Origin: Carposina sasakii
Taxonomy: Eukaryota > Arthropoda > Insecta > Lepidoptera > Carposinidae
NCBI GenBank assembly: GCA_014607495.2
Contig: CP053154.1
Span: 7,750,001 to 7,814,000 of the forward strand
Direction: 5' to 3'
DNA: 64,000 bases
A model generated the notes under the pieces. That model worked only from the letters and a program-made list of their open reading frames with translations. It made no database searches and was not told the origin of the DNA. The translations under genes were made by a program, and so were the position numbers. This document shows, piece after piece, positions 7,223 to 58,795 of the stretch (positions are counted from its first letter, which is position 1; each line of letters starts with the position of its first letter).

Positions 7223-7628
7223 GATTCGGCGGGAAAAGCTGGAAGGGTGCAGGTGTAATTTTCTTGTGAAAATGAAAAATTGTTTGTAAATAGCTTGCAT
7301 GTGTCCGAAAAGTGATGTTTTCTGGTAGATAAGTTATATTTTGATTACTTGTGATGTTAATCTAGTGCGTGTGCATGGTTTTATATGCAGGTAAGCCGAG
7401 TAAAACTTTAGCTGGATTACGATTTCTTCATGGGCGCATGTAAGTTGTTTCTGCAATAATTTTCCATTTTGACTAACTTTACACTTGTTCTTGAGGATTT
7501 TCCCGACGTTTCATCATCATCATTATCATCCATCATAAATTCAGAAATCATTTTACTAGACAATGATTAGGCTGTATGGGCTTAGTTCCCCTTGCCTTTC
7601 CTTCGGGATAAACTAAATAATAATAATA
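7223..7628 (+). mobile_element. Family D retroposon, copy 1, in the mIF3 leader
   Basis: A 406-bp element starts at GATTCGGCGGGAAAAGC and ends TTCGGGATAAACTAAATAA plus an (ATA)n tail. It is flanked by a perfect 13-bp duplication, TGAAAAATTTTAC, at 7210-7222 and 7629-7641. Three more copies with the same 5' end and A-rich tails lie at 15413, 15857 and 16581. The shared 5' end, 3' tails and target duplications indicate LINE-mediated retroposition of a full-length short transcript. I see no clear Pol III A/B boxes. Confidence 0.85.
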
Positions 7629-8775
7629 TGAAAAATTTTACAATTTTTTATTTTCATAACTGGAAAAAATCACAAAAAAGCAACAAAGCTCAGCAGCAAG
7701 GCTTTTATATTAGTGACTGGAACATGAATAGACTAAACGTACTATTCAATGTACGACGAGCTCTAGAATGTAGGACTATATCAAAAATAATTACAGCAGA
7801 TGGAAAAGATGTACCCAAGAGAAAAACTTTTGAACAGAGAATAACTCTTATTAGCCCTGATAATACTGTTAGTATAACTGATTTAAAAAATGCTCAAACC
7901 CTTTCCTTAAGGCGAGATTTGAAATTAGTTAAAATACAAGATGAAGATTCAAAAAGTAGGAGACCAATTTACAGGTAAAACTAAGTTTATGTTCTGAGTA
8001 AACTTACTTAAATTTTCATTAGCTTCAATCTTCATGATTTCATTTAGTATCAACCTAATTCCACGTACCTACTTAATCAACTTTTTTCAACATATATTAG
8101 TAAATGATTCAATTAATTAATTGAGTAACTATTCAATATACAGGTTAATGACAAGTGCTGAATATCTTAAAGAAGATTTGGAGAAAAGAAAGCAGAAGCA
8201 ATCAGCTCGCAAAGATAGTTCTGTAAAAGGAGAAAAACTGCTTACTATGTCAACAAAAATAGGTGAACATGATCTTATGACAAATATAAAAAAGATGCAG
8301 AAGTTTTTACAAAAGCACTATGAAGTGAGGGTAGTTATATCTGGAGATGGGACTGAAAGTGCTTCTCAAACTGTAAGTAACCCTTCCCCATCTAAAGAGT
8401 CTATTCTTGTTATATTAAATTTCATACTGTTGCTTATAAATACATATATATTTATATGATTTAATTATATCAATATTTGCATAAGTGGAAAATTAGCCAT
8501 GTGCAATGTGTATAAAACAAATATATTTGTTTTTCAAATTATACTCCTTAGGTAATCTCTTCATCTTACACATAAACCAACCTTTTAATATTGTGTTACA
8601 GGAAAGGATATTTTCAGTAATAGAGAGAAATCTAAAATCTCTGGGCAAGATTCTTCAGAAAAGAAATAAGGGCAGTAGCCTTAAGTTCCAGTTACAGCCT
8701 ACATCATCGGCCACACAATCTATAGACAAAGAGTCCACTTCTCCTGACAATGGTAATGATAAAGGGCCACTATGA
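7628..8775 (+). CDS. mIF3: Mitochondrial translation initiation factor 3 (three exons)
   Basis: mIF3 binds the mitochondrial small ribosomal subunit, blocks early 39S joining and helps select the start codon. Exons are 7724-7974 (or from 7628), 8144-8372 and 8602-8775, joined at TACAG|GTAAAA / ATACAG|GTTA (phase 2) and CAAACT|GTAAGT / TTACAG|GAAA (phase 0). The IF3 N-domain is visible as RITLISPDNTVSITDLKNAQ, then LRRDLKLVKI and RRPIYRLM. The C-domain follows as STKIGEHDLMTNIKKMQKFL and YEVRVVISG, then a polar tail to TGA. From ATG 7724 the protein has 217 residues and opens with MNRLNVLFNVRRALECR, a good mitochondrial presequence. The ATG at 7628 adds 32 residues but is formed by the retroposon tail and its target duplication, so 7724 is the likelier ancestral start. 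Confidence 0.88.
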
Positions 8776-11560: not shown

Positions 11561-11635
11561 ACACTTTTGGAAAACACCCTACTCATCCTACTACCCAATT
11601 TATTCTACGCCGAAGCTAACGAGAATATTTTGAAA

Positions 11636-12994
11636 ATGAACCCAAACAACGAAAAGAAAATCTACACACCAGAAGAGATTAAGAAAATAGCCCCAGGCTA
11701 TAGAGGAAAGCCAGAACGATTCGATCCAGCTAAAGTTGGAAAGAAGCGTGAGCCACCTCAAAAGAAACAGGGCCCGGCAACGCCAAAGGTACCTGCCCCA
11801 ACAGCAACCGACAAAGCTACAAACCCAACTCCACCGAAGAACAGTCCTATGTGGGCTGACTCCGTATTCGGAATTGACGTAGCCGTCAGGGAGCTAGACA
11901 TCAATCAGGAAGTGACTCCAAATTTCGGGAGAGCTCCAGAGATTGTTGAAGAAGTTTTCTCCGCTATTAGTGGAGATGACTCAAATCTTAATAAACAAAT
12001 GACCAAAGGCATGTTGATGTACTACACGACGTCGATGCTATGGGCACGTTTATTAGATATAAAGGCCAAGCGTGGAAACACAAACTTGACCTTCGAGGAA
12101 CTCGAATTCTGCAAAGCAGTCATGCAGCACGAGTACAACATTCCACAACCCATCTATTTGTTCCTAAAAGGAATAGGTGAAGTCAAAGATTCTACAGGTA
12201 AAACTGTACATCTTGCTAATCACGTACTCCCAGTAACAGTAGTACAAGGTGTGGGCGGTTATCACTCAAATGCTATTGACGCAACATCACACAATCTTTA
12301 CGAAGAAATTCCATCTTTAGGAATTTGTGGAGACGTAGTGATGGCAGAAGCATCGGAAGCGGCGCAACCAACGCCAAACTTTCGTGTGTTACCTCCAAGA
12401 ACCAGAGCGACTCGCGCATTGTGCGGTTACTTTGGACCCATTGGTGCTCGCAAAGAGGAAGTACGTATACTATTAAATTCAGTAGGTATACATGCGAATT
12501 CCTTCGATGAAACCATTGGGAAAACAAGGCTAAACATCAACCTACTACAGAAGGTAAGTGATTACTTCGCTGGATGTCCTACATTCCGCAATGAAAAAGT
12601 AAAACTTGATGCTCTGACAATAGAAGGAGATGCAGCCCAACTCATTCGTTCAATACCAACGAGTGAAAACGTGAATCCAAACGCGAAATGGACTGAATTG
12701 GTCATCAGACCGACATCAGCTAACGCGAATGCGACCACGATATTTGGTGCCTCATATGTTATGGGATACCAACTATACAAAGAAGCAGTTGAACAAAGTG
12801 ACGCCAATTGGTGTTGCGTTGAACAAGCTTCATTAATCCAGCCTTGGAACATACCACAAGAATGGATTACAAACAGAAACGAAAGACGAACTCTACCTCC
12901 AGGATTTGGAATTGACAGATTTGTGTCGATATCCGATTCACAGAGAAATAGAACAAACGCAATCGTTCGCAGAATGATTACGAGTCTTCGTTAG
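11636..12994 (+). CDS. Virus structural-protein-like ORF (probable endogenous viral element)
   Basis: A single uninterrupted 452-codon frame runs from ATG 11636 to TAG 12992-12994. The frame is open upstream to a TTG at 11567, but no earlier ATG exists. Residues 1-70 are Lys/Pro-rich and look disordered, with a PGYRGKP motif at 20-26. The remainder looks like a compact globular domain with an alpha-rich part (about 90-180) and conserved-looking blocks such as QHEYNIPQPIYLFLKG and ALCGYFGPIGARKEE. No CCHC knuckle, protease or reverse transcriptase is present, so it is not a retrotransposon gag of the usual kinds. Its length, basic N-terminus and lack of introns fit a capsid or nucleocapsid protein of an insect RNA virus. 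A partiti-like origin is my guess only. It is richer in GC than its flanks and carries no stop or frameshift. Confidence 0.6.
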   Translation: MNPNNEKKIYTPEEIKKIAPGYRGKPERFDPAKVGKKREPPQKKQGPATPKVPAPTATDKATNPTPPKNSPMWADSVFGIDVAVRELDINQEVTPNFGRAPEIVEEVFSAISGDDSNLNKQMTKGMLMYYTTSMLWARLLDIKAKRGNTNLTFEELEFCKAVMQHEYNIPQPIYLFLKGIGEVKDSTGKTVHLANHVLPVTVVQGVGGYHSNAIDATSHNLYEEIPSLGICGDVVMAEASEAAQPTPNFRVLPPRTRATRALCGYFGPIGARKEEVRILLNSVGIHANSFDETIGKTRLNINLLQKVSDYFAGCPTFRNEKVKLDALTIEGDAAQLIRSIPTSENVNPNAKWTELVIRPTSANANATTIFGASYVMGYQLYKEAVEQSDANWCCVEQASLIQPWNIPQEWITNRNERRTLPPGFGIDRFVSISDSQRNRTNAIVRRMITSLR

Positions 12995-13158
12995 TTAAGT
13001 AATAAAATTGACCGCGGCCACGGCGAGCAGCATCGAGGGTACAGTCAAATTTATTAAATATTAAGATTAGTTAACATGAGAAATTTTCTCAAATGTAAAA
13101 TAATTAGTTTTAAATTAAATTAAATTTTCGTTAATTTTTATTTTCATAGTATAATTAG
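12995..13158. other. Spacer between viral-like ORF and retrotransposon
   Basis: AT-rich 3' flank of the viral-like ORF. The retrotransposon joins near 13159, directly after the last in-frame stop at 13156-13158. Confidence 0.5.
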
Positions 13159-14375
13159 CATAGGGCAACAGGCTGTATGAGGACAGCTCCTACTGCAGCT
13201 CTGGAGGCCATGCTAAGCCTACCGCCACTCCATCTGTTTATCAAACAGGAAGCAGCGTCTTCAGCGGTACGCCTCAGGTCCTTAGAACTCTGGAAAGAGA
13301 GCGGTACGGCCCACACAACCATTCTCACGGAGGCCTACGAGGATTTACCGATACTAAGGGCACCCAGCGACAGGATCCCCAAAAAGTGGGTATTTGATAA
13401 AAAATATAAAATCCAGTTGCACGAGAATGACGACTTCGAAGGCCTGAACTTGAATGAACTTAGGATATTCACGGACGGGTCCAAAACAGACTCTGGGACG
13501 GGGTCAGGAGTATTCTCCGAGGACTTGCAGGTCAGAGTCGCCACACCTTTGGGATACTACAACACGGTCTTCCAGGCCGAGTGCTTCGCGATCTCACAGG
13601 CAGCTACAGCCATAATAGCCAGAGAGGTAACTGACCAAGGCATCAGAATCCTCTCGGACAGTAGGGCAGTCCTACAGGCGTTAAACAGCAACACTGTTAC
13701 CTCGGGGCTCGTCTACGACTGCCACCGCCGACTAACAGAGGTATGTAGATACAACCGTCTCACACTGCAGTGGATCAAAGGCCACAGCGGCTCGAGAGGT
13801 AATGACTCTGCGGACGCGCTGGCCAGACAAGGTTCGAACCTTACAGCCATAGGTCCGGAGCCCATCATACCAGCCCCCGCAGGCATCGCCAGGACCTTGC
13901 TGAGAGCTAGGACTGGCGAACAGCATAATGCACACTGGTTCAGTCAAGAGGACTGTCGACAAGCAAAAGAGGCCTTACCTCAAATTTGCGGCCGACTGTC
14001 AAAGAAGCTAATACAGTTGAATAAACCCCAACTGAAACTGATAACCAGTATTATTACAGGTCATGGAGCCTTCAACAAACACCTATCCACATTAGGTGTT
14101 ACAGACAGCCCCCTGTGCAGAGCCTGCATGGAGGAAGAAGAGACAGCCGCCCATCTGCTGCTGCGCTGCAGAGAAGTGGCCCCGTACCGGGCAAAATATC
14201 TCGGCTCTCCAGGCTCGCTTAGCGAGACTTTGGGCAACCTGAAAAGGCTGCTAGGATTCCTGGAGGAGATAGGCTGGCTCGAGTAGAGAGCACACCACCC
14301 TTACGCAAAATAGGCGCACAGACGTCGAGTTGCGGAAACAAGCCCGTTCTACCATACCATACCATACCATACCCT
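13159..14375 (+). mobile_element. 5'-truncated non-LTR retrotransposon: RNase H and zinc knuckle
   Basis: The open frame reads from about 13159 (ATG at 13177) to TAG at 14284-14286. It begins inside the conserved linker RATGCMRTAPTAALEAM, then carries a complete RNase H domain with FTDGSK, AECFAI, SDSRAV, KGHSG and GNDSADALA, so all catalytic acids are present. A C-x2-C-x8-H-x4-C knuckle (CRAC...H...C) follows. The endonuclease and reverse transcriptase are missing through 5' truncation. An (ACCAT)4 tail at 14351-14370 probably marks the 3' end in place of poly(A). The order RNase H then knuckle suits R1/LOA/I-type elements. It has no stops, suggesting a fairly young insertion. Confidence 0.85.
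14351..14373 (+). repeat. (ACCAT)n microsatellite tail
   Basis: Four perfect ACCAT units plus ACC, placed where the upstream LINE fragment should end. Confidence 0.9.
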
Positions 14376-14622
14376 ACTCATCACCTTAGGCATTTATGTA
14401 AAGCAACCTGGTTCTCAAAGGTTCCAAGTCAACTAGATGCCAAAAGAACATTGTTCGTCGTCAGTGTCCTCACTCACAATATACGTATAATACTTGGTCC
14501 TTTGAGTCGGATAGTGGTATCCGCCATCAAAATTTAGTGCTATTTTTTAATTAGGTACCTAAAAGTGCATTAGTTACGCGTACACTATATAGGCATATCT
14601 GTCTCTCTCTGCCGGAGGTAAG

Positions 14623-14708
14623 TCAGTGTTTATGGTGCGGCCCCAAGTTAGCAAGGGGGACACGGTTCCGACGACGGGCGCAGCGCGCACTACACTTTTT
14701 AGAAGATC
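14623..14708 (-). CDS. Insulin-like gene, coding exon 4: C-terminus
   Basis: Acceptor TTTTTCTCTTTCAG|GATC is close to ideal. Entered in phase 1 it reads SSKKCSARCARRRNRVP, then ANLGPHHKH and TGA at 14623-14625. It lies 6.1 kb from exon 3, so an unseen exon or an alternative 3' exon remains possible. An ATTAAA on the minus strand at 14546-14551 could serve for polyadenylation. Confidence 0.6.
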
Positions 14709-17700
14709 CTGAAAGAGAAAAAGATTCCTTAGGAAATCAGTTCTTATGTGTTGAAGGCTCATTTACACGATACCGTTTTCTTGTCTGTTGTCATACAATT
14801 TTATCGAAACAATGCGTGTTATTTTAACAGTTACTTACATTTACATTTTGATAATAATGGCGTATCAATAATTGAATACAATTATTGCTTTTGAACGTAA
14901 GTCCAGATATTTATAAGAAAATGGTAGGTATCTTGTAAATACTTAAGCCTTTATGGTATGTTAGTTTTCAGTTTTACAGGCACAGCACAGTGTTAGGCAT
15001 GTAAAAATACAATAGTAACTAAAAACACTCAATTATCAAATGATCCATGCAAGGAATGGCTTTAAATGCAAGCAGTAGGTAGATTGATTTTCTTTTTCGC
15101 CGTCGAATAATCGACGGCAGTCATCCCCAATACAAGACCAGTTTTTGAAGTCGGAAACGACAATACGCCACCTCAATTTTGTAGGAGATGGAGATGTTCT
15201 ATATTCCCTGAGAGCTTATGTACCGAAAACATGAAAATGTCCATGCGGTTTAAAATGCATGCACATGCGCGTTGGGAAAAGTTCTACAATAGAGAAACTT
15301 TAGTTCCAGGTACATAGTTCTACTTACAGAAATGTATAATCAAATATTGTTTTCTAGGAATTTGGTTTTAATGAACGCATCCGTAACAAGTAGTACCTAG
15401 GTAATACTTATTGATTCGGCGGGAAAAGTTGGATGCACCCTTCCAACTTTTCCCGGTGTAATTTTCTTGTGAAAATCAAATAATATTTGTAAATGACTTG
15501 CTTGTGTTCGTAAAGTGATGTTTTCTGGTAGATAAGTTATATTTTGATTACTTGTTATGTGAATCTAGTGCGTGTGCATGGTTTTATACGCAGGTAAGCT
15601 GAGTAAAACTTTAGCCGGAATACGATCTCTTCATGGGCCCATGTAAGTTGTTTCTGCAATTATTTTTAATTTTGACTAACTTTACACTTGTTCTTGAGGA
15701 TATTCCCGACGTTTCCATTCATCATCATCATTATCATCCATCATAAATTCAGAAATCATTTACTAAAGACAATGGCTGTATGGGCTTAGTTCCCCTTGCC
15801 TTTCCTTCGGGATAAACTAAACAAAAAAAAAAGTAATACTTATTACGGATGCGTGTCAGATTCGGCGGGAAAAGCTGGAAGGGTGCAGGTGTAATTTTCT
15901 TGTGAAAATCAAAAATTGTTTGTAAATGGCTTGCATGTGTCCGTAAAGTGATGTTTTCTAGTAGATTAGTTATATTTTGATTACTTGTGATGTGAATCTA
16001 GTGCGTGTGCATGGTTTTATACGCAGGTAAGCCGAGTAAAACTTTAGCCGGATTACGATCTCTTCATGGGCGCATGTAAGTTGTTTCTGCAATAATTTTT
16101 CATTTTGACTAACTTTACACTTGTTCTTGAGGATTTTCCCGACGTTTCCATTCATCATCATCATTATCATCCATCATAAATTCAGAAATCATTTTACTAA
16201 ACAATGATTACGGCTGTCCCAAAATAAAACACTGAATATGCCATTTTGTGAAAATACTGTTTATCCCAATTTTGGATGTTCTGTGTTAATATCTTCCGTT
16301 TATGGCGTATTCTGTGTTTTTGGACCTTGGTATCTTTGCCATTTTAACCATTTTCAAAAAACGGATTTTTGATTTAGGTAGTAGTTGCACACAGAACATC
16401 CAAAATTGGGATAAACAGTATTTTCACAAAAATGGCATATTCAGTGTTTTATTTTGGGACAGCCGATTAGGCTGTATGGGCTTAGTTCCCCATGCCTTTC
16501 CTTCGGGATAAACTAAAAAAAAAAAAAAAACGGATGCGTGTGATATCCACCCAGGGATTTGGTATCTTCTCCACCAATAAGATTCGGCGGGAAAAGCTGG
16601 AAGGGTGCAGGTGTAATGTGTAAATGGCTTATGTGTCCGTAAAGTGATGTTTTCTGGTAGATAAGTTATATTTTGATTACTTGTGATGTGAATCTAGTGC
16701 GTGTGCATGGTTTTATACGCAGGTAAGCCGAGTAAAACTTTAGCCGGATTACGATCTCTTCATGGGCGCATGTAAGTTGTTTCTGCAATAATTTTTCATT
16801 TTGACTAACTTTACACTTGTTCTTGAGGATTTTCCCGTCGTTTCCATTCATCATCATTGTCATTCATCATAAATTCAGAATACATTTTACTAAGCAATGA
16901 TTAGGCTGTATGGGCTTAGTTCCCCTTGCCTTTCCTTCGGGATAAACTAAAAAAAAAAAAAAAATATATCCACCAATAATATTTATTGGTCCATGAAACT
17001 TGAAAATATGAAGCATGTCAAATATTATACAAGATGATTTTTGATCGACAACGTTCCCGAAAACCACGGAATCTCCTCGTCATGTATGGAAGCATGCCTG
17101 GGAAGTGTCTGGTTTCCAAAATATTAGGGTCCAAAGCTGAGTAAATAGACTGCGTTTTTCTGCATAAATGCACATTGACGCGTGTAGCAAAATTTTTTTA
17201 CGAGAAATAATTAATATTTGTCTCTGAAAAAACTAGCATAAACACTGGACCAATCAAGAAATAAAAAATTCAAAAAAATTTACATGATTTCCCAGCATTT
17301 TTTTTTAGCATAAACTTACTTTTTTCATGTTTAGAGTACGTACCCTTCGTTAAGGGTGGCAACGAAAAAACATCCTGTAGCATAGTAGGTACCTACATCT
17401 CTAGTGGAAATGGAATGGCAGCCCAGGAATTTGGTATCCTTCTTAAGGTAGGTTCCTACGGTCCGTGATATTGCGGACCGACGCGCACAAGCGCGCACCA
17501 CGGATCGTGGGAAATAGAGCGTCCGTGGTAATGCAGACGCGTCCGTCTCGGTGCGCCTGCATCCTTAAGGTGGGTTCCTACGGTCCGTGATATTGCGGAC
17601 CGACGCGCACGAGCGCGCACCACGGACCGTGGGAAACAGAGCGTTGGTAATGCAGACGCGTCCGTCTCGGTGCGTCTAGATCCGATAAATGTAGGCGGAC

Positions 17701-20700
17701 GCGGACCAGCCTGCACCGACACGCACCGTGGGATAGGGTCGTCCGTGGTAATTGCAGACTCCGTGGCGGTGCGCCCGATCCATGGCGAAGGATAGCTCAG
17801 ACGCGGTGCGCGCTCGTGCGTGCTCGTTGTCTATAGGCGACCACATAAAAATTGACGACCATGTCGACGGCTGCATGGATGCAATAGCGATTGTGGTAGT
17901 CTAATGGCATTTTTGAATACTCGTACACTCGTGAATACACTTCTGAATTTTTAGTATTTGCCCAGATATAAAAAATGCTACTTTATTCAAGACCTAATAG
18001 GGAATACTAAACTTTCCCTAATCTTACTTGAGGTAACAGATTACGGTTTTTTGAAGAAAGCTTTTATACACTTCACAACACATTAAAATTACACATTACA
18101 ACTTGCATAAGCCTTTAACAGTAATTTACCTATACAGGGTGTTTGTGACAGCCAGGCAAATATTTATGGCGACTTCAGCATGATTCTAAATTTTCGCAGG
18201 AAAATTCATTTTTCCGGCATATTTTCCACGCGTAGATAATGACTTAAAAACAAAATTTTAACCTATTGATTTTCGAAAAGAAAGTCCCAAAATTTCAAAA
18301 TACTAATGAACCCTATTGGATAGTTGATTTATAAAACAGCAATGTACTGTATCACACAATAACCAAATAAGCTGAAATCAATACAATTACTTTGCGGATA
18401 ATCAAATTAAAAATATTTCCTGGGAGTAATAACACTGTCGTCATAACAATGGTACTTGTTCAGCGTTTCATTCAGTATCACACACACCTTGTATGTATAG
18501 ATTTTTGGTCGTCAACGTTCCCGAAAACTAAATCTCATCATCAATGATTTTTCTCCATGGGAGGCATTAACTACAGTTTTCTGCATTAATGCACATTTGT
18601 AGCAAGATTTTTCACGAGAAATAATTAATATCTGTCTATCAAAAAATTTTATTGGGCACTATAAATTTCGCCCGATCATAAAAAAATTACATCGTTTCCC
18701 AGCTTTTAAACTTACTTAATGATGTATAGACGTACCCTTCGTTAAGGGTGGCAACGAAAAAACATCCCAGGATGTAACAAAAAGGTTATGTTAAGCTATG
18801 TAAATAGCCCACTATAGAGAACCTATCCACGAGAAAATCACATTTTTCCCAATAGTATGGAGAATTTTTGTATCTCAGGAATTTTCATACAATAGCTTAT
18901 AGTCGTGCTTCAAACTATTTCGAGTTCGCTGTACAAAGTATGTACTGTAAACAAACAACTTGTCCCTAGAAATATTATCCTAGTTTTCTTAGACATAAAT
19001 AAAATTGTATGCGTTACAATTCGGAAGTTCAAACATTCACTATGGGTGTGCCCAACACCGGGCCCTACACCCTCCACTTCTGATAATTCATAAGTTCATA
19101 ACTCACTGCACTAACTACAATCGCCAGTGCTCGGGTCTGGTTTCGCGTGGCGATTGTAATTAGTAGTGCCTGTTTTCGCAGTTATGACCAGATACAGTGG
19201 AGGGTGTAGGGCCCGGTGGTGGGCGCATCCATAGTTAAAGCGTGCTACAAAATAAATACCTTCAAGTAGTCCATGGGTTACGATGCCGTACTAAAGTATT
19301 TCAGAGAAAATAGTCCTTATTTCAATAAGGCTGCGTGTTATAACAAAAAAAATACTTTTTTACGAAAGTATTTTCTTTCAGTTAGCGCGATTCTACACCT
19401 TAATAGATATAGCCTAAGGTTTAATTTATCACTACGATACTTGCAACGTAAAGTCTTCCACGTATTTCGGCCCAGACCGCCGACGACCACGGACGGGCAC
19501 GCACCGTGGGATAGCCTCGTCCGTGGTGCGCGTTCGTCCGTAGCCGTCGGCGCGTCCGCGTCCGTCTGCAATATCACGGACCGTAGGAACCCACCTTTAG
19601 GCAGCCTAATGTACTTATTAATTTTTATCAGTATGAATGACATATAAGTAAGTATGTAGTTTGATTTTAACTGGTAAGTATGGTACATAATCTGATAGTG
19701 ATTCGTTCAAGACGTAATTAGTTAGTTTTAATGTAACATTAGTAAACTTGCAAAGCATTAGTAATGAAGGTTAGTGAATCGCCGCTATTTGTTCTCGATT
19801 TCGGCTTTTACGAGTACCTACTAAGTACTTTTTATAAAATGAATATTTTTAATAATAGGTATGTATTACTTTCATAAACGCCCCGACATAGCTAGCTGCC
19901 TACTAATGTAAAATCTTAATATAATAGCCATCGTATCGTTATACTTTGAGGTATGACTCTACCTACATACGAGTATATTGTTGTCAAGTAGACTTTTACG
20001 GCGGACTAATATTCTTAAAAATATCAGTGTTGTAATTTTTTTTAAATAGGTACAGCTGTAAACAGCTTCATAGAATAAAAAAGTTCTCATACGCTTACAA
20101 ACTACCGTACGTACGTAGCAAACTCGTAGCATATGCTACGAGTGCTACGATGCGTAGCGCTGTGCCTGCGCGCATAGTCCCGCGATACTGACTATTTTAA
20201 TTTTATTGAAACAAATATTTATTCGCTGACTATAATAGGCTTTACTAACTCTACTGTAGAGATTCCCTTTTCAGGTGCCAATTAAATGCGATAGTACGAT
20301 ATATAATATAGGTCACGCACGCATAACCATACGAGTATAAGACATTAGCATGAATAAAAATAGCATGTCTATGTAATCTACATAAAGTTCTATAATTACA
20401 AAAAAATCTGATAGCGACATCTGTTCATCTAAGTATGTATTAGAAACAAACCAACATCCACAAATGGACTATGGTTAAAGTTGTACAAGCTTTGAGAATA
20501 TGAATTATGTAAAAATCTTTACAGCCTTAAAAACAAAAAATAAGAGGATCGCGATACGCTAAGCTTTAGTTAAGTATTAACTACCTGAGCTAAGCTTTGC
20601 ACTTGTATCAGTGTACATAGATTAGTGTTAATACGTACTCGTATGCATCGGCGTAGAGCGTGACGCGACCCTTAGGTACCTACTTGTACGTACACTCACC

Positions 20701-23700
20701 CAAATGCAAAACTGAGTTTAGACCGCGCGGCAATTTTACACGTAATATCCAAAACCTGTACACAGCCCATACTGTACAACAAAGAAGAACAGACACGAGA
20801 ACAAATAGACGGCGATGGACAGACACACCATGTTACCCATGAGTGCGGGTCGCCGGCGGCCGGACCGCCGTCGCCGGCACCAGCAGCGTCGGCGCCCGTA
20901 CCCGCGACTGCCCCCCGCCCGGCGCCCGGTCCGCCCCCCGTCCCGCCCCACCTCCACCGGCCGAGACCGCATCAGCATCATCGTCGACTCGCTGGCGCGC
21001 TCGGCTGAACGGTCTTCGATCATGTGCGACTCTAGGTCTTCTAGCGGCGATTCGGAACTGCAATAAAGGATATAAGTGGTAAATAAACTTTTAAGGAAAA
21101 GTGAAAGGTGGTGTGATAATCTATTTTAAGGTCATTCGACGTAACCTCAGTCCTCAGATTTGTATTTGCGTGAGTATACATAGATATCACTAACTGAGCT
21201 TTGTTAGTGATATCTATGCTCAAGCAAATGCAAAAATGAGCTCAGGCTCCGCGGATTATGGACTTGCGACCGCCAATGTAGCTCAAGTGGTGCAGTAACA
21301 TGACGTGCTACGTGTTTACTACAACAAATCCAAATATACTTGGGGATTAGGGATCTTTGCTATTTTCACGATTTATATAGATATTGTTATAATGTAAACT
21401 CTCTTTTAAAAGTATAAGTGAATGCAATAATATCAAACTTACTTGGCACTGATAGCGCAGTAGGAGCTGAGTTGTTTCCACGTGCATCCGACAGTGCAGC
21501 ACTCGTCCGCTATGCCTGCGTGGCGCTTTCTCCGCGCGCTTGGGTGCTCCACTACTGGAACAAAAGTATAATATCGCTGTTTAATAGCGAACCGCACGCA
21601 AGCAAAGAAAGCCTAAAATATTCAATGCAATATTCATCTAACGTCCTTTGTATAGAATATTTTCACTCTTACGCTTAAGACTGTTTCACATCGCGATGAA
21701 ACATTTTTTTGAAATTAAAATTTGCTGACCTGGGTACTTACGAGGGCTGTTTGATAAGTCGTTTTAAAAAGTAAACTATTTACATTGCAATATCAACAAG
21801 TCTCCTTTGAGGGCCAAACACTTGTTCCAGCGAGTTGTCCATCCCCTCCAAAAAATACGTTTTGGTCGAGGTAGGCGTTTACACCAGCGATCCAGTCCTT
21901 ATTTGTCAAAAATTTTTGCCCTCCAAGCCATCTTTTCAGATTTGGGAATAGGTAATAATCGCACGGAGCTAGATCCGGCGAATACGGAGCATGCGGAACC
22001 AGTTCGAAGCCCAACTCGTGGATTTTGGCCATTGCAATAGTTGACGTGTGCACTGGGGCATTGTCTTGATGAAAGAGGACATTTCGGACAATTTTGGTCG
22101 TTTTTCCAACAATTCGGCATTAAAACGGTCCAATAACTCTGCGTAATAACGGCCAGTGATAGTCTTTCCCTTTTCCAAGTAATCAATCATAATGATTCCT
22201 TCGCCATCCCAGAAGACTGTCGCCATGACCTTTCCAGGACAAAACAGTTGGGGGTCACCAGTCGCCATCCATGATTGCTGATTCAGGTGTATAAATGGTA
22301 CCCAAGTTTCGTCCACAGTGACAAATCGACTATTCCGAATTACGCTTCATCATATCCAAACAAAGTTTTGAAATCGTGTTTTTTTCGATTGTCAACAAAC
22401 GTGGACATCGTGCTTTGTCATACCCAAATCTTCATGCAGGATTTTATGTACTGGAGATGCCTGTGTTCTCAGCTATTTCACGCACCTTCACTCGGCGGTC
22501 GTCGAGTACGACTTCTTCAACAACACAGTAGTGACTTCGATTGGGCGACCAGAGCGTGGAGCATCAGATGTGCTTGACCGACCACGTTTAAAATCATTTA
22601 TCCAGTTATAAACAGTCTGCAACGTTGGTGCGTTAGTGCCATGAACAGAATCAAGTTCAGTTTTTATTGTGGCAGCACTGCAACCCGATCATAAAAAAAT
22701 GTTTTATAACGGCACGAAATTCAGTTTTTTCCATAGTTGTTGAATTTTACGAGTGATCACATAAACAATGGTTATACTGACAAAAACTATGTTGCTGAAT
22801 TTTTGACAGTCTTCATTTGAAAGATTGTGCCTGCCAGTGTTAACGCCATTTACCAGAAAAAAGGTTTTACAAATAGTTTTTAAAAGGACTTATCAAACAG
22901 CCCTCGTACTTACATTGCAATATAATAAAATGGGTTGTCATAAGTGGCGAGGTAGAGACGAGAAGACCTGGTCATTTACATCTAGGTATTCTCGCTATGT
23001 TAAACGTGACTGTCAAATCTCATTATCTCATTTCGGAAAAACAGCCGTGTGTATGTATGTATGTAATTAGATATCTGGAGTTGGTACACACATGACTTTC
23101 TAAATGGTACATTGTTATTAATTATTTATAGGTAACGTTATCTGTTTCATTAAATAGGACTTCTGTTGTTTATTTTAAATTAGATTATGAGTCATGTCAT
23201 TTTTTAACGAATTAGAAAATAGGAATATTTATTTACGAGGCGTTTTATCCGTCTTACTTTCCTTACTAAGTTCGATGTAAACGAGCTATAAAAAGGGCAG
23301 TAGGTAGTAGTTTTAGGCATACCTAGTAGGTATGCTGTTAGTCTTCCCATGTTCGGAAATACCTCTATATGCCAATAAATATCTATATATGCCAATAGTA
23401 ATTAACGCTCAAACGTAACAGTCCATTAATGTAGGGTTAAGCAATAATTTTACTGTGATTAGCAGACATAAACATTCAAAAGGTCATTGGATGTATTGAT
23501 AGATAAATGATGAACACATGCCAGATCACATTATATTATGGAGCAAAGTTTTAACTTGTTATTGTTTTAATACTTATAGCACACCTTCATCATTCAACTG
23601 TTCGATAAAGTGTAACATAAGGGCTAGCTTAAACGAAATATGTACTTACTATGGGTATATAATACCTATATAATAAATAATAATGTCCAATATATTTGAG

Positions 23701-26598
23701 ACACAAAATTAAATCTTTATTTTCGATGATTATGTGAACATTCATCAGTAAAATTCCACTTTCGTTACACCCTGTCTACATACAAGGCGAGACAAAGTAT
23801 GGATGCTCTACGAACCCGACATGCGTGACATGTAACTGTAAAGTATAGAAGCTACCCTAAAAACTGCTGAAATGAAAGCTTCCTTTTACATTTATGTTCT
23901 ATCACTCAAACTTGTATGCAATGCTAAAAGCTACCTTTTAAACTTGTGTGCTACGACAAAGGCTACCTTTTAAACTCGTGTGCTACGATAAAGCTACCTT
24001 TTAAAATTGTGTGCTACAATAATAGCTATATTTTAAACTTTTAGGTATGCTACTATAAAAGCTATCTTTTAAACTTGCGTGTTACGATAAAAGCTACATT
24101 TAAAACTTGTAGGTATAGGTACAATAATAGCTACTTTTTAAACTTGTGAGCTACGATAAAAACGTTATTTTAAATATGTGTGCTACGATAAAAGTTTATA
24201 GACTTATGTGCTACGACATAAGCTTCGTTTAAACTTGTGTGCTACGAGGCAAGCTCATTTAATTTTATTTACTTGTGTGGTTCAACACAAGTTCCTTTTT
24301 TCTTTTATGCTACGACGCAAACTTTCGTTTTGTCATGAAAACTAACTAATCACTACTTTTGATAGAGAGAGTGATTCAAGAGGAAGGTTTATATGTATCT
24401 ATCTATAGTATCAGCATTGCACCCGTGCGAAGCCGGGGCGGGTCGCTAGTACTATAATGCACGGTCTCTTATTGTTTGCATTGCAGTGTTTGCACCCTGC
24501 CTATATACTAATGAATTATGCAAGCAGGATCTACTTTCTTTATCTATACATATAATAAAAATGTAACGGGTCGCAGTCTGTACATGGAAGATATATGAGA
24601 AAAAAATATTATAGGAGACCTTTATCAACGCAATAGTACCCAAAACAATGATTTTTGAAATTTTGTCTGTTTGTCTGTGCACGCTAATCTCAGAAACGGC
24701 TGAACCGATTTCGATGCAGTTTTCACGAATATATTGTGACAGGTCCCACTTAACATATAGGCTACTTTTCATCCCGGGAAATGTTTTTATCCCGGATAAT
24801 TTCAACATTTGATTTTTCTGTAGTCCACGCGGACGGAGTCGCGGGCGTCCACTAGTAATACCTATAATTTTAGTATGCGTGGTTCCTTAACGTTTATCAT
24901 ATGTCAATCAGGATGTTAAAATGAAATTAAAGTAGGTATTGCTTCAGATTGGTGGTCGTCTGCTGCCTGGGTAGCTCATGGCTAGATATGACCGATACTC
25001 TGATGTCTTTGTCTGGAATGTTTATATTTATTTTCGCTTCACTCAATAGGTCAAGTGCGGGTTAATTTTTAAGAATATAATTATAAAGTCTATGACTCCT
25101 GATAACGTTGGAATGTGACTAATTGGCAAATAAGTAATACGAAATAAAAATAAATTATGTTTTACCAATTCTTAAATTACTCTGAATGGTTGTGTTATAA
25201 AGGCGATCTTACATTAGTTATATAATTAAAATTGACATGCACTAACCCCGTGTAACTGGCATTTATTAGAGGTTAACGTTATTTTATTACATTGGTACAG
25301 TGTGAATAATGTACAGAACAGTTTGGATTTATTTATTTATTTATTGAGAAATGTTAAATATTGAGGATGTATTTAAAAGCCACGTGTTTCATGTACAGGG
25401 TGTAACAAAAAGGGTATGTTAAGCGAAAAGCTATGTAAATAGCCCACTATAGAGAAGCTATCCACAAAATTTGAGATCCGAAATCACATGTTTATTTTTC
25501 CCGATTGTATGGAGAATTTTTAAATATCTCAGGAATTTTCATACAATCTTGAAAATTAAAAATGTGATTTCGAGTCTCGGTAATAGGTTCTCTATAGTGG
25601 GCTATTTATACAGCTTTTCGCTTAACATACCCTTTCTGTTACATCCTGTATAAGTACAGTAGTATCACGTAGTAATGTGTGATGCTGTCTGCCAAAGATC
25701 CGTCTACATCTCAGCGTGTGTAGCCGCCCTAAGGCTGACCTTCTCATTATCTTCCTCGATAACCGACGTTGCCTCGCGGATGTTATTGGTTTAGACGAAT
25801 AGACGATTGCAAATTAGAATAATTGAAGCTGAATGTAGGTAAAAATGCAAAATTCGAGAGGATTTCCAATTTAACATTTTTAATAATTGAAATCTTTAAT
25901 TAAATTGGTATAAACACGGACACAAACATTTTTTTTTCAAGAAATTCGACTGAGTATTTTAAAGGTGTACCTACTCAATTTCCTGTGAGTGCTTTAAAAA
26001 AAATCTCTCAAAACTGTTATTTTCAAAAAACTTTTTTCACTCTTCAAAAAATATATTTTTAAGGGTGTTTATAAATATAAGGGTATATATATATATATAT
26101 ATATATATATTAAGGGGTTTATAGTTCATAAACGATAAAGTTTTTTGATGATTCTTTATTTGTGGGCATGGAGATATCACAAGGTACCATGACTAGGTCC
26201 TGATAATGATATCCCGAAGAAATCGAGGAAAATAGAAGTGCTAATTAGCTAATTGCTGAGTTGTATTTTTGTTATTATTTAATATCTGTCGGTCTGCGGT
26301 AAATTCTGGTCGCAATAACTTAATTAGCAAATGTCTGTATCTATTGACGAGTTAATACCGGTTATCATAGAACCCGTAGATAAATACCGTGGGTAAACCA
26401 AGTGAGGTTAGCAATAAGTGCCGGCATCTAACCTGTGGGCACGTCCCATGCCGGGCTGTTGTACGCGTGGCAGACTCTGCTCATGATCTCCCCGAGCTTG
26501 CGTCCACACAGCTTCTGGCTGGCCGGCGCGCCGTCGACGCTGGCGTCCCACAGCGTAGCCACAGCCAGCATCATCAGGTGCAAGTAGTTGCTCTGCAT
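14623..26598 (-). CDS. Insulin/IGF-like peptide precursor (four coding exons)
   Basis: This is a secreted insulin-superfamily hormone, expected to act on the insulin receptor. Coding exons on the minus strand are 26433-26598, 21443-21554, 20837-21057 and 14623-14708, giving 194 residues. Intron phases are 1, 2 and 1, and every donor and acceptor agrees with the reading frame. Order: signal peptide (1-24), B chain with C-G-x2-L-x7-C, a short connecting region with one RRKR site, A chain CC-x3-C-x8-C, then a basic C-terminal extension of about 100 residues. The phase-1 intron in the connecting region is the ancestral insulin-gene position. Bombyxin genes lack introns. The short connector and long extension suggest the arthropod IGF-like class. 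Exons 1-2 are secure. Exons 3-4 rest on splice logic. A mariner relic lies in intron 1 and three retroposons in intron 3. Confidence 0.87.
14709..15400. other. Intron sequence, no feature
   Basis: Part of intron 3 of the insulin-like gene. AT-rich, no exon or classified repeat seen. Confidence 0.4.
15413..15832 (+). mobile_element. Family D retroposon, copy 2
   Basis: Starts at GATTCGGCGGGAAAAG and ends in GGGATAAACTAAAC plus poly(A). The 12-bp duplication GTAATACTTATT lies at 15401-15412 and 15833-15844. Near the 5' end a local rearrangement makes the palindrome GGGAAAAGTTGGA...TCCAACTTTTCCC. Confidence 0.85.
15857..16529 (+). mobile_element. Family D retroposon, copy 3, with nested MITE
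   Basis: Flanked by ACGGATGCGTGT at 15845-15856 and 16530-16541 and ending in a poly(A) run. Its left target duplication directly abuts the right duplication of copy 2. Two extra bases (CA) precede GATTCGG. A 255-bp MITE interrupts it at 16211-16465. Confidence 0.85.
16211..16465. repeat. MITE with ~75-bp inverted repeats
   Basis: CGGCTGTCCCAAAATAAAAC...TTTTGGGATAAAC-type arms run inverted from both ends, and ATTA is present on both sides (16207-16210 and 16466-16469) but only once in uninterrupted copies of the host retroposon. The insertion is therefore defined at base level. Superfamily unclear. Confidence 0.8.
16581..16968 (+). mobile_element. Family D retroposon, copy 4
   Basis: Starts at GATTCGGCGGG with the 11-bp duplication TCCACCAATAA at 16570-16580 and 16969-16979. 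The tail is poly(A) then TATA. It has a small internal deletion after GGTGTAAT relative to copy 1. Confidence 0.85.
17030..17377. repeat. MITE family C copy
   Basis: Shares GTTCCCGAAAACCACGGAATC and CCCTTCGTTAAGGGTGGCAA with the copy at 5678 and is bounded by TA on both sides. Confidence 0.7.
17446..17690. repeat. Tandem pair of ~122-bp GC-rich units
   Basis: Units starting at 17446 and 17568 both open AGGTRGGTTCCTACGGTCCG and share GTGATATTGCGGACCGACGC. A related inverted stretch lies at 19480-19600. Open frames through it are repeat-derived. Confidence 0.75.
18135..18491. repeat. MITE family B copy
   Basis: Begins CAGGGTGTTTGTGACAGCCA after TA. The far end CACACACCTTG is its degraded inverse. 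Related copies at 36050-36489 and 44012-44479 share AGCCAGGCAAA and CATTGTTTTGAGTTATACGA-type blocks. Confidence 0.65.
18495..18770. repeat. MITE family C copy, degraded
   Basis: Contains TTTTTGGTCGTCAACGTTCC and ACCCTTCGTTAAGGGTGGCA with internal deletions relative to the copy at 5678. Confidence 0.6.
18771..18900. repeat. MITE family A fragment
   Basis: Contains GTAACAAAAAGGTTATGTTA and ATAGCCCACTATAGAGAACC as in the full copy at 25396. Confidence 0.6.
19039..19235. repeat. MITE with 40-bp GC-rich inverted ends
   Basis: ACTATGGGTGTGCCCAACAC...CCCTACACCCTCCACT on the left is matched by the reverse complement of the right end with only a few differences. About 197 bp, non-coding. Confidence 0.75.
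19600..20836. other. Intron sequence, no feature
   Basis: Within intron 3 of the insulin-like gene. A short ACGTACGTAGCAAACTCGTAG/TAGCATATGCTACGAGTGCTACG inverted motif occurs near 20105-20150. No exon seen. Confidence 0.4.
20837..21057 (-). CDS. Insulin-like gene, coding exon 3: C-terminal extension
   Basis: Acceptor CCTTTATTGCAG|TTCCG is excellent. The phase-2 frame reads SESPLEDLESHMIEDRSAER, then a Gly/Arg-rich part with RRRCWCRRRRSGRRRP, and ends at CATGG|GTAACA in phase 1. Only this frame continues exon 2 without a stop. The phase-1 frame stops after four codons. The DNA is very GC-rich, so open frames also occur on the other strand, but none of those has splice support. Confidence 0.75.
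21153..21240 (-). ncRNA. Pre-miRNA-like hairpin in the insulin-gene intron
   Basis: The 88-base stretch folds into one stem. The core arm ATAGATATCACTAAC (21179-21193) pairs perfectly with GTTAGTGATATCTAT (21203-21217) across a loop of about 9 bases. Outer pairing of GAG/CTC, ATTTGC/GCAAAT and CTCA/TGAG continues with small bulges. Size and bulged stem fit a miRNA precursor. It lies wholly inside the 385-base intron between coding exons 2 and 3. The strand is not decided by sequence, and a small MITE could also look like this. Confidence 0.4.
21443..21554 (-). CDS. Insulin-like gene, coding exon 2: cleavage site and A chain
   Basis: Acceptor ACTTTTGTTCCAG|TAGTGG and donor GCCAA|GTAAGT are both near consensus. 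The exon reads EHPSARRKR, a furin-type site, then ADECCTVGCTWKQLSSYC, an exact CC-x3-C-x8-C A-chain pattern with the usual Leu and Tyr. It enters in phase 1, matching exon 1, and leaves in phase 2. Confidence 0.93.
21741..22906 (-). mobile_element. mariner transposon, inactive
   Basis: Terminal repeats CGAGGGCTGTTTGATAAGTC...TTTTAAAA (28 bp, one mismatch) end at 21741 and 22906, with TA on both sides. The minus-strand transposase relic spans 22734 (MEKTEFRAV) to 21793 in at least three frames. The catalytic triad can be read as TVDETW, HQDNAPVHTS and CDYYLF, with exactly 34 residues between the last two acids, giving the D,D34D signature. Frameshifts and length loss make it non-functional. 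It sits in intron 1 of the insulin-like gene, in the same orientation as that gene. Confidence 0.9.
22909..23870. other. Intron sequence, no feature
   Basis: AT-rich intron 1 DNA. Only short TATG/TACC-type simple repeats are seen. Confidence 0.4.
23900..24325. repeat. Minisatellite, ~34-bp units
   Basis: About a dozen degenerate units with the pattern CTTTTAAACTTGTGTGCTACGATAAAAGCTAC follow one another. Units diverge towards the right, where the TTTTAAACTTGTG part is least conserved. The unit is not a coding multiple that stays open and has no spacer structure. Confidence 0.85.
24409..24856 (-). mobile_element. RTE-like LINE 3' fragments
   Basis: Holds CACCCGTGCGAAGCCGGGGC (24420) and, inverted, CGCGGACGGAGTCGCGGGCG (24827) with TCATCCCGGGAAATG between. 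Same family as 38720-39145. Confidence 0.65.
24857..25395. other. Intron sequence, no feature
   Basis: AT-rich intron 1 DNA. No exon or classified repeat. Confidence 0.4.
25396..25648. repeat. MITE family A, complete copy
   Basis: CAGGGTGTAACAAAAAGGGT...GCTATGTAAATAGCCCACTATAGAGAA is inverted almost exactly at the other end, and TA flanks both sides. The element is nearly one long hairpin of 253 bp. Confidence 0.8.
25649..26432. other. Intron sequence with a (TA)n tract
   Basis: A pure TA run lies near 26086-26110. No other feature. Confidence 0.5.
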
Positions 26599-26606
26599 GG
26601 TTTAAT
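26433..26606 (-). CDS. Insulin-like gene, coding exon 1: signal peptide and B chain
   Basis: Acceptor GATTCCAG|ATTAAACC lies eight bases before ATG 26598-26596, so another, non-coding exon must lie upstream. Residues 5-17 (YLHLMMLAVATLW) form the signal-peptide core, with cleavage likely near DGAPA. The B chain reads KLCGRKLGEIMSRVCHAYN, with the C-G-x2-L-x7-C spacing of insulin B chains. The donor CCCACAG|GTTAGA leaves phase 1. The long open frame on the same strand in another phase is a shadow. Confidence 0.92.
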
Positions 26607-56589: not shown

Positions 56590-58795
56590 GCTACAATCTT
56601 TATTAGGAATACTTTTTAGATTTCGCGAGGGCCGCGTAGCTATCACTGGTGACCATCTCTACTTAGTCTGTGCTGGTGACGTCCGGGAAATGTTTCCACA
56701 GATTAAAATTCAAGAGAGTGATAGGGATGCGCAGAGGTTTTTGTGGCGCGGCGGGGACTTTACTGCCCCAGTAAATGAATATAGAATGAGCTCGATGATT
56801 TTTGGTGCCGCTTCGAGTCCGTTTATTGCTGTATATATAAAAAATAAAAATGCCATGGAGTTTGAAAAATCGCATCCGAAGGCAGTTCATGAAATTATCG
56901 ACAATAATTACATGGATGATTATATTAGTAGTTTCGATGACGTTGACGAGGCAGCCAGCGTAGCGTTAGATATACTGTACATAAGTTTTGTTGTTTTGAA
57001 ATGCGAGCATGGATCTCTAATGATGACTCGAAGGCTCTGTCGGGCATTCCAAAAATGTTGTGGGCTAATCCTGACATTGATGTTAGCCTGCCATCGGAGG
57101 TAAGTGGGATTATTTGGAATCCTTCTGAGGATGTATTAAGATTACGTATGGGATCCCCAAATGTCAACAATAATCTAACTAAACGAAGTGTATTATCACA
57201 AGTCATGAAGGTATATGACCCATTAGGATTTTTAGCTCCAATTACCATACAGAGGCGAATTCTCATTCAACAACTGTGGAGACAAAGCTTAGGCTGGGAT
57301 GATACACTACCTAAAACATTCGCTAATATGTGGAAAGAATGGTTAGAAAGTCTAGAAGGGACACACAACATAAAAATTCCCAGATGGTACGTCGGTTCCC
57401 ATAATGTCAAGGACACCCAACTACATGTGTTTTGCGACGCTAGTGAAGAGGCCTACGTATTGGCGTTTCGAGTTTGATGATGGAGGTGTTAAACTAGCTT
57501 TAATAGCCAGTAAAGCACGCGTAACACCTTTGAAACCGTCTACCATACCTAGGCTTGAGCTACAGGCTGCGTTGATAGCATCAAGACTTTCTAGGACAAT
57601 TCAGGATAGTCATAGAATAAAACCGTCATCTATTGTATATTGGACTGACTCGACAACAGTTCTGCAATGGTTACGTGGGGATGCTCGCTGGTATAAGCAG
57701 TTTGTAGCACATAGGGTTGGAGAAATAACCGAGACTACGAACGTTGCAGACTGGCATTGGGTTCCCGGGGCTCTTAATGTAGCAGATGATGCTACGAGAT
57801 CCAATGTTGCAATAACTAACGTGTCCCATAGGTGGTTCATAGGTCCGTCCTTTCTCCTAGGTCCTCCTGAGGATTGGCCGAAAGAGCCTGTGAGAGAGAT
57901 CACGCCAACTCCGCAGTTAAAAAGCGAGTTGGTGCGATATCTAGCACAGGATGCAAGTCATGATAATGACATACCCATACTAGACCCAAGTCGCTTCAGT
58001 GTCTGGTCTAGACTTCTACGAGCTACTGCACGATTTATAGTTTTCTTTAAACAGGTAGTAGCAGAAGACATCATCCTAGCAGAGAGATTGTTAATATCTA
58101 AAATACTAAAGGATTGTTTCTCTAAAGAGTTAATGGCTTTGAACTCCTTGCAAGTCTTACCTAAAGACAGTCGCCTTTCTTCCCTCGCCCTGAAGATCGA
58201 CGAAGAAGGTCTTTTAAAACTGGACTCTCGGATAAAGAATGCGCCTGATACAAATGAACAGTGAAACAGGCTCTGCGCGCTACGCTCAAGGAGAAGATAC
58301 CGAAAGAGGACGTTTTGCACACTTTCTTACTAGAAGCCGAAGCCATTGTTAATTCACGCCCATTGACGTATGTACCTATCGCAGCGGACGCACCGGAAGC
58401 CATAACCCTCTTCCACTTCTTGATCGGATCGTCGTCCAACACAAACTGGTACGCGAACCAGGTGGACGATAGTGAGTTACATCGGCACAATTGGAGGAGC
58501 GTGCTGCGATTAGCAGACCACTTTTGGTCTCGTTGGGTCCGAGAGTTGCTACCCACACTGATGCCGAGGAAGACTGCAACGGCAGCCACCCCTTAGGTGG
58601 AGAGGAAGGAAGGCGACATAGTGCTGGTTGTGGCCTCATCTTTGCCCAGGGTTGTCTGGCTCATAGGCAAAATTATTAAGTTATACCCTGGGCTAGATGG
58701 GCACGTACGAGTGGTGGATGGGGCCATTAAGGGGGGTGTTTTGAAGAGTGTGCCACTCGTCGTGGGTGAGCAGGCAGTTGCCACTCACTGACTGT
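56590..58795 (+). pseudogene. BEL/Pao retrotransposon pol relic
   Basis: Segments in order: reverse transcriptase with AGDVREMFPQIKI, FGAASSPFIAVYI and YMDDYISSF (56660-56940); the connection region with KVYDPLGFLAPITIQRRILI; RNase H with HVFCDASEEAY and YWTDSTTVLQWLRGD; then the zinc-binding start of integrase is lost. The C-terminal integrase part (EAEAIVNSRPLTYVP) and the DUF5641-like end (GDIVLVVASSLPRVVWLIGK) follow at 58261-58791. Frame changes occur near 57000, 57470 and 58260. The integrase catalytic core is deleted, so the copy cannot move on its own. A TGTTGGCGACTGCTTGG motif at 58818 after a purine-rich run may start the 3' LTR. Confidence 0.85.

What the first reader, a model, noticed from the sequence alone, without database searches (positions are those of the whole stretch)
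14623..26606. Insulin/IGF-like gene hidden in four short exons
B-chain spacing C-G-x2-L-x7-C at 26433-26598 and A-chain spacing CC-x3-C-x8-C at 21443-21554 lie on the same strand. They join through a phase-1 intron, the classical insulin-gene position. Exon 2 leaves in phase 2, and the only frame of exon 3 that continues it stays open for 73 codons and then joins exon 4 in phase 1. None of the exons stands out as a long frame, so a simple ORF scan misses the gene.
Basis: partly seen in the sequence, partly recalled or inferred. Interest (0 to 1): 0.92.

Follow-up and report, generated by a model that had tools for sequence, protein, structure and literature searches.

The report
Butterfly-or-moth insulin-like growth factor gene
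This is a real butterfly-or-moth gene for an insulin-like growth factor already known from other insects, and it looks built so that different splicing makes cells read its last exon in different reading frames, giving one hormone several different tails.

Summary
The finding is real. [quoted passage not shown] Veenstra 2020, PMC7357564): Pfam Insulin 3.5e-9, best lepidopteran homologue E 6e-63. A donor 8 bases on (exon 3 ending 20829, not 20837) gives 213 residues with the GTVSP tail; an internal donor (20952) gives 172 residues without the arginine-rich part. The 8 bases shift the frame of exon 4. In 8 of 8 species with both proteins, one DNA sequence explains both tails (0 of 2000 scrambled tails pass). 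The frame-2 tail keeps C-x3-C in the window and 14 of 14 frame-2 relatives. Third-phase tails fit in 5 of 5 tested. Selection on frame 2 is suggestive only: 11 of 73 frame-1 proteins could not encode the full motif, and the site test is weak. No RNA of this species was available. The gene is of a known kind; I found no paper on the multi-frame last exon.

The parts
26433..26606 (-). Coding exon 1 (first coding exon; a few bases of 5' UTR, signal-peptide-like start, B chain). ATG at 26596-26598; donor after 26433, phase 1
   Evidence: aligns with relatives' N-terminus
21443..21554 (-). Coding exon 2 (rest of connecting peptide with RRKR, A chain GIADECCTVGCTWKQLSSYC); leaves in phase 2
20829..21057 (-). 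Coding exon 3, longest form; C-terminal extension including the arginine-rich CWC region
   Evidence: alignments
20952..20953 (-). Donor D1 (GAG|GTGGGG, phase 0; 20952 is the last exon base): short isoform without the arginine-rich part, 172 aa predicted
   Evidence: relatives' short isoforms such as P0030, P0041, P0043 change tail at the matching residue
20902..20903 (-). Donor D2 (CGG|GTACGG, phase 2; 20902 is the last exon base): third-frame entry to exon 4, truncated 147 aa predicted
   Evidence: 5 of 5 tested third-frame tails of relatives fit one exon 4
20837..20838 (-).
   Evidence: 13 relatives plus Plutella P0080
20829..20830 (-). Donor D4 (ATG|GTGTGT, phase 0; 20829 is the last exon base), 8 nt beyond D3: family-typical frame-1 tail, 213 aa
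   Evidence: the Gly-Asn that spans D3 is kept in 31 of 31 long frame-1 proteins of relatives
14574..14708 (-). Coding exon 4, frame 1: DLLKSVVRAAPVVGTVSPLLTWGRTINTDLPPAERDRYAYIVYA, stop ends at 14574
14623..14708 (-). Same exon 4 read in frame 2: (G)SSKKCSARCARRRNRVPLANLGPHHKH, stop ends at 14623
14546..14551 (-). ATTAAA, possible polyadenylation signal, 22 bases after the frame-1 stop codon
   Evidence: hexamer match only
21793..22346 (-). mariner/Tc1-type transposase remains inside the intron between exons 1 and 2; not part of the gene product
   Evidence: Transposase_1 8.9e-16; DDE_3 1.2e-4, the latter below Pfam's cut-off

Best explanation
The locus is the aIGF gene of a lepidopteran. It encodes a secreted insulin-fold growth factor (B and A chains joined by a short connecting peptide with an RRKR site) with a long C-terminal extension. 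Tail identity is set at splicing by a cluster of donors in exon 3. D1 skips the arginine-rich CWC region. D4 includes it and enters exon 4 in frame 1 (GTVSP tail). D3, 8 bases upstream of D4, includes it and enters exon 4 in frame 2, giving a basic tail with a C-x3-C pair. D2 enters in the third frame and stops quickly. So one exon is read in more than one frame. Shown here: the exons, the open frames, the splice-site sequences, the family, matching isoform proteins in relatives, and that one DNA sequence explains both tails in 8 of 8 species. Inferred: that these transcripts are made in this species; that the hormone comes from fat body among other tissues and acts through the insulin receptor kinase (from the literature on aIGF, dilp6 and BIGFLP); and that the basic tails tune retention, stability or receptor choice.
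For: Pfam Insulin 3.5e-9. IGF-I chains in the PDB, 4.7e-6. 104 homologues over; every one listed with a species name is lepidopteran, including Bombyx LOC101740144. Veenstra 2020 states that Bombyx has an aIGF, and that the typical aIGF gene has four coding exons, an alternative splice site in the middle of exon 3, an arginine-rich part (in many species with two Cys) and a GTV-type last exon. All four donors and both exon-4 frames lie in the window with matching phases. 8 of 8 species pairs are back-translation consistent, against 0 of 2000 scrambles and 3 of 56 cross-species pairs. Third-frame tails 5 of 5 tested (the Pieris pair uses two species; a sixth candidate, P0034, had no partner and was not tested). 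C-x3-C in 14 of 14 frame-2 relatives plus the window. P0022, a 221-aa frame-2 form, comes from a contig of 908 bases, too short to hold introns of this gene, so most likely a spliced transcript.
Against: No transcript of this species. Many of the relatives' isoforms are probably automatic gene models (labels such as 'isoform X2'). AlphaFold gave a poor model of the Plodia frame-2 isoform (pLDDT 49.5), so it adds nothing firm. The last position of Veenstra's GTVxPx(F/Y) pattern is L here. No second insulin-like motif pair lies in the 64 kb, so the gonadulin/relaxin neighbourhood that Veenstra reports for cockroaches, termites and stick insects is not seen in this window. Veenstra's idea that the extension selects between two receptor kinases fits Lepidoptera poorly, since he reports only type A insulin receptor kinases there (passage).
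Confidence: 0.88

Rival explanations
1. The gene is aIGF, but the frame-2 (D3) and third-frame (D2) forms are splicing noise: a leaky donor next to the real one, open in frame 2 by chance, with no function. (This contests the function of frame 2, not the identity of the gene.)
For: Uniform synonymous recoding of the window's frame 1 leaves frame 2 open over its first 27 codons in 42% of 20,000 draws, keeps both Cys in 7.9% and does both in 3.3%. The site test is weak: the Ala wobble that makes Cys2 has 0 steps where 14 other degenerate sites average 3.4-3.6, Poisson P(0) about 0.03, chosen after looking, and two of those other sites have only 1 step. Steps are fewest near the exon start, as splicing enhancers would also give. 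Of 73 frame-1 proteins, 5 (three tortricid species) can encode neither Cys, 2 (gelechiids) not the second, and 4 not the first at that spacing. Plutella and P0022 lack the shared stop.
Against: C-x3-C in 15 of 15 frame-2 sequences including the window; the relatives come from five families (Pyralidae, Crambidae, Nymphalidae, Noctuidae, Plutellidae; family names recalled) and one unnamed source. The frame-1 residue at the Cys1 wobble is N, S or D in own-species pairs, and G if Vanessa's frame 1 stands in for Nymphalis, while the Cys stays. Gly-Asn spanning D3 is kept in 31 of 31 proteins, though this is seen at residue level only and could have a protein reason. P0022 is most likely an assembled transcript.
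Confidence: 0.5
2. It is a bombyxin or Bombyx IGF-like peptide (BIGFLP) gene.
For: Same insulin-type cysteine pattern; Lepidoptera; one relative (P0068, Hyposmocoma) is named 'bombyxin F-1-like' by its source.
Against: Most bombyxin genes lack introns (PMC3745042, passage), whereas this gene is split by three introns within its coding part. The long arginine-rich and GTVSP tail is what Veenstra uses to set aIGF apart, and he treats BIGFLP as a different peptide.
Confidence: 0.02
3. A decayed pseudogene or a chance pattern.
For: Large introns with transposon remains; cysteine spacing alone arises in 3 of 200 shuffles.
Against: Open frames through all exons, donors and acceptors in the right phases, 55-65% identity to 13 relatives.
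Confidence: 0.01

Closest known systems
[quoted passage not shown] in Lepidoptera the Bombyx mori LOC101740144 type (P0021)
   Same: Insulin core, short connecting peptide, four coding exons, arginine-rich CWC region that an exon-3 internal donor can remove, GTVSP last exon. That P0021 is the Bombyx aIGF of Veenstra is my inference from its sequence; his sequence files were not seen.
   Different: Veenstra's section 9 describes inclusion or exclusion of the arginine-rich part, and a stop-codon variant in the honeybee; the words 'reading frame' and 'frameshift' do not occur in the main text. Here exon 4 is in addition open, and in relatives annotated, in a second frame.
Vertebrate IGF-1 Ea versus Ec/Eb (mechano growth factor)
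   Same: Insulin-like growth factor whose 3' splicing shifts the frame of the last exon and so changes the C-terminal E peptide (PMC3485521 and PMC3448668, passages)
   Different: In IGF-1 the shift comes from including exon 5 or part of it; here from two donors 8 bases apart in exon 3. The tails were not compared in sequence.
Drosophila dilp6
   Same: Proposed aIGF orthologue, very short connecting sequence, fat-body growth factor (PMC7357564 and PMC3745042, passages)
   Different: Veenstra reports that both extension exons are lost there
Bombyxin / BIGFLP
   Same: Insulin family, Lepidoptera
   Different: Bombyxin genes mostly intronless

Membership tests
Insulin superfamily (PF00049) | B chain CG-x2-L-x7-C and A chain CC-x3-C-x8-C, Pfam match above gathering score | tested here: met
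   38 bits against a cut-off of 23; motifs
[quoted passage not shown]
   open frames and splice phases in the window; no RNA
aIGF (Veenstra 2020) | short connecting sequence between B and A chains | tested here: met
   30 residues between the last B cysteine and the first A cysteine (product)
aIGF (Veenstra 2020) | arginine-rich region in exon 3, in many species with two Cys | tested here: met
   RRRCWCRRRRSGRRR
aIGF (Veenstra 2020) | alternative splice site in the middle of exon 3 that removes the arginine-rich region | tested here: inconclusive
   donor D1 with the right phase lies in the window and relatives have short isoforms changing tail at the matching residue; use in this species not seen
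aIGF (Veenstra 2020) | last exon with a sequence near GTVx1Px2(F/Y) | tested here: inconclusive
   GTVSPLL here: GTV and P fit, the last position is L; Bombyx P0021 has GTVSPLI; Veenstra writes 'more or less'
aIGF (Veenstra 2020) | signalling through a receptor tyrosine kinase | not testable with these tools
Bombyxin genes | mostly intronless (PMC3745042 passage) | tested here: not met
   three introns within the coding part

The most novel reading that the evidence does not exclude
In Lepidoptera the last exon of the aIGF gene is an overprinted exon under selection in two frames. Paired donors 8 bases apart decide whether the growth factor carries the family-typical GTVSP tail or a basic, four-cysteine tail (C-x-C plus C-x3-C) that makes a distinct, locally retained or differently signalling hormone. 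This would be an independent invention of the frame-shifted E-peptide switch of vertebrate IGF-1.
Probability: 0.35. Interest if true: 0.75.

Novelty: new variant of a known kind. Interest (0 to 1): 0.5.

Why it matters
If frame 2 is functional, one insect hormone gene sets tail identity, and perhaps range of action, by choosing between two donors 8 bases apart. It would be a conserved overprinted exon in an animal growth factor and a second case of the frame-shifted C-terminal tail known from vertebrate IGF-1, testable in silkworm. At the least it shows that some lepidopteran aIGF proteins listed as 'uncharacterized LOC isoform X2' differ from their sister isoforms by a frame shift in a growth-factor tail.

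Tried and rejected
Membrane-anchored form: reading through the D4 donor in the window gives a hydrophobic tail. Seven of 97 relatives held look like read-through, but their tails diverge within about a dozen residues of NMVCL or NTVCL, so I take these as intron retention or model errors; the short shared stretch after the donors may be a splicing element. Structure: one AlphaFold job on a 22-sequence alignment headed by Plodia P0001 gave pLDDT 49.5 and pTM 0.19; no fold search was run on it. Other orders: profile searches with a frame-2 and a frame-1 alignment (capped at 7987 and 7993 scored candidates, word-based) listed no hit named as non-lepidopteran, so whether caddisflies or beetles share the second frame is open. 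Whole-genome search for other insulin genes got no answer in three tries, so copy number in the genome is unknown. Species: the tree places the window nowhere with support; highest identity 72% over 107 columns, to Parnassius. tRNA scan found nothing. A GC-richer patch at 37.0-37.5 kb (GC 0.498, CpG ratio 1.23) could be a promoter, but nothing ties it to this gene. Maruca ILP1/ILP2 knock-outs (PMC8284963, passages) were looked at for function, but I could not tell whether either is this gene. The regular expression for a tighter A-chain motif was written wrongly (its count of 0 is void). The automatic sorting called a tail frame-2 only if it had C-x3-C near its end, which would be circular. 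I therefore read the leftovers by eye: of 104 proteins, 73 have GTVSP, 14 are frame-2 (13 sorted, plus P0080 found by eye), 7 read-through, and 10 others (six third-frame-like, P0034, P0048, P0068, P0078, P0081, P0090; four partial models, P0092, P0094, P0096, P0097); I saw no frame-2 tail without the motif.

Full report
Observation. On the minus strand the window holds the four exons as described: 26606-26433, 21554-21443, 21057-20837 and 14708-14623, with acceptors and donors in the stated phases. The loose cysteine patterns alone are weak evidence: 48 of 200 shuffles show a B pattern, 10 of 200 an A pattern, 3 of 200 both on one strand. The spliced product scores 38 bits against Pfam Insulin (cut-off 23, E 3.5e-9), matches IGF-I and IGF-II chains in the PDB (best 4.7e-6), and finds 72 proteins at E<=1, best 6.2e-63.

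Family. together gave 104 proteins. Every one listed with a species name is lepidopteran, among them Bombyx mori LOC101740144. Veenstra 2020 (PMC7357564; abstract, section 9 in full and passages seen; supplements not seen) states that Bombyx has an arthropod insulin-like growth factor, expressed in fat body. He describes the gene type by four coding exons, an internal splice site in exon 3 that includes or skips an arginine-rich part, in many species with two cysteines, and a last exon near GTVxPx(F/Y). The window shows these features as sequence, with L in place of the last F/Y, so I file it as an aIGF orthologue. It is not bombyxin: most bombyxin genes lack introns (PMC3745042, passages), and Veenstra keeps BIGFLP apart from aIGF.

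I find four usable donors in exon 3 of the window, picked by matching relatives' isoforms. After 20952 (phase 0): 172 residues, arginine-rich part skipped. After 20902 (phase 2): 147 residues, quick stop. After 20829 (phase 0): 213 residues, the family-typical form ending DLLKSVVRAAPVVGTVSPLLTWGRTINTDLPPAERDRYAYIVYA. The last two differ by 8 bases, so exon 4 is read in two frames.

Is the second frame real elsewhere? Thirteen relatives and Plutella P0080 end in the frame-2 type of tail. For all 8 species where I held both a frame-1 and a frame-2 protein (Plodia, Amyelois, Achroia, Bicyclus, Loxostege, Ostrinia, Spodoptera frugiperda, Plutella), a single exon-4 DNA sequence exists that yields both. 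Controls: 0 of 2000 scrambled tails (250 per species) and 3 of 56 cross-species pairings pass. Short third-frame tails of Danaus, Battus, Pectinophora and Hyposmocoma, and the longer one of Pieris (two species), fit exon 4 in the third phase, 5 of 5 tested. Four of the five tails are only three residues plus stop, so that test is lenient, and a sixth candidate (P0034) had no partner. P0022 is a 221-aa frame-2 form from a 908-base contig, most likely a spliced transcript; that 'lgn' denotes assembled sequencing runs is my inference.

Is the second frame selected? For: C-x3-C is kept in 14 of 14 frame-2 relatives plus the window. The Ala wobble that makes the second Cys is T in 14 of 14 rows, and the neighbouring Arg wobble C in 14 of 14, while most other degenerate sites vary. 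Rows: 8 with own-species frame 1, 5 with frame 1 borrowed from another species (Aphomia from Galleria, Chilo from Diatraea, Nymphalis from Vanessa, Mythimna and Heliothis from Helicoverpa), plus the window; P0022 was dropped because its stand-in frame 1 did not fit. On a tree drawn by hand from recalled phylogeny, the Ala site has 0 steps against a mean of 3.4-3.6 over 14 other sites counted as four-fold (Leu included), Poisson P(0) about 0.03; two of those 14 have 1 step. Gly-Asn spanning the D3 donor is kept in 31 of 31 long frame-1 proteins, a few from the same species.

Against: the per-site value is modest and chosen after looking. Constraint is strongest near the exon start, as splicing signals would also give. 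Under uniform synonymous recoding of the window's exon, frame 2 stays open over 27 codons in 42% of draws, keeps both Cys in 7.9%, and does both in 3.3%. Of the 73 proteins with a frame-1 tail, 62 could encode both Cys of C-x3-C, 4 not the first, 2 (gelechiids) not the second, and 5 (tortricids) neither. Plutella and P0022 lack the shared stop. I call selection on frame 2 suggestive, not shown.

Mechanism. Shown in sequence: an insulin-type core with a signal-peptide-like start, an RRKR site in the connecting peptide, and tails that depend on the donor. Inferred: secretion from fat body and other tissues and action through the insulin receptor kinase (from the literature on aIGF, dilp6 and BIGFLP); basic tails with C-x-C, or C-x-C plus C-x3-C, change retention, stability or receptor choice. 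Receptor choice is the least likely of these: Veenstra reports only type A insulin receptor kinases in Lepidoptera, with a kinase-less relative. The nearest functional parallel is vertebrate IGF-1, where 3' splicing shifts the frame of exon 6 and changes the E peptide (PMC3485521 and PMC3448668, passages). This is likeness of working, not a claim that the tails are homologous.

Novelty. Searches (open-licence PubMed Central only; the lists showed 20 of more than 1,100 papers each) turned up no paper that I recognised as describing a frame-2 exon 4 in insect aIGF. I saw listings for most of these papers, and passages of PMC8220825, PMC10148640, PMC9552230 and PMC8284963. Supplements could not be read, so Veenstra's supplementary alignments may hold such forms. 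The gene is a new member of a known kind; the multi-frame last exon is a variant on it that public annotation already contains.

Surroundings. A mariner-type transposase remnant lies in the first coding intron, a BEL/Pao fragment at 57374-58264, a LINE-type RNase H frame at 13159-14286, and a mitochondrial IF3-like gene near 7.6-8.8 kb. An s2m element sits directly behind a 477-aa open frame at 11561-12994, a layout reported for winter moth by Tengs and others 2021 (PMC8515862, passages). No second insulin motif pair lies in the window.

Noticed in passing
13007-13049 (+), with the open frame 11561-12994 (+): Rfam s2m (coronavirus/astrovirus-type 3' stem-loop II motif, 55.8 bits) starts after a gap of 12 bases behind the stop of an intact 477-aa frame that has no Pfam match; parts of it have no PDB or PHROG match. 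Same layout as the s2m just behind an uncharacterised 331-aa protein in winter moth (PMC8515862, passages). Whether the protein is the same family was not tested.
   Followed up: partly
8121-8459 (+), probably 7586-8775: Mitochondrial translation initiation factor IF-3-like gene in exons (IF3_C 1.2e-6 in the middle piece, below Pfam's cut-off; the flanking pieces had no such match).
   Followed up: no
13159-14286 (+): LINE-type frame with RNase H (4.6e-13), ending about 290 bases beyond the growth factor gene's frame-1 stop, on the other strand.
   Followed up: no
57374-58264 (+): BEL/Pao retrotransposon remains (Peptidase_A17 3.9e-15).
   Followed up: no
about 20790-20828 (-): The intron right after the donors keeps VCLxxAxxLFS-like coding potential in the window and in P0017, P0071 and P0072, perhaps a conserved intronic splicing element.
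   Followed up: partly
about 15780-16980 (-): Three near-identical stretches containing 'TTTAGTTTATCCCGAAGGAAAGGCA' in the last coding intron, seen by eye; looks like a repeat family.
   Followed up: no
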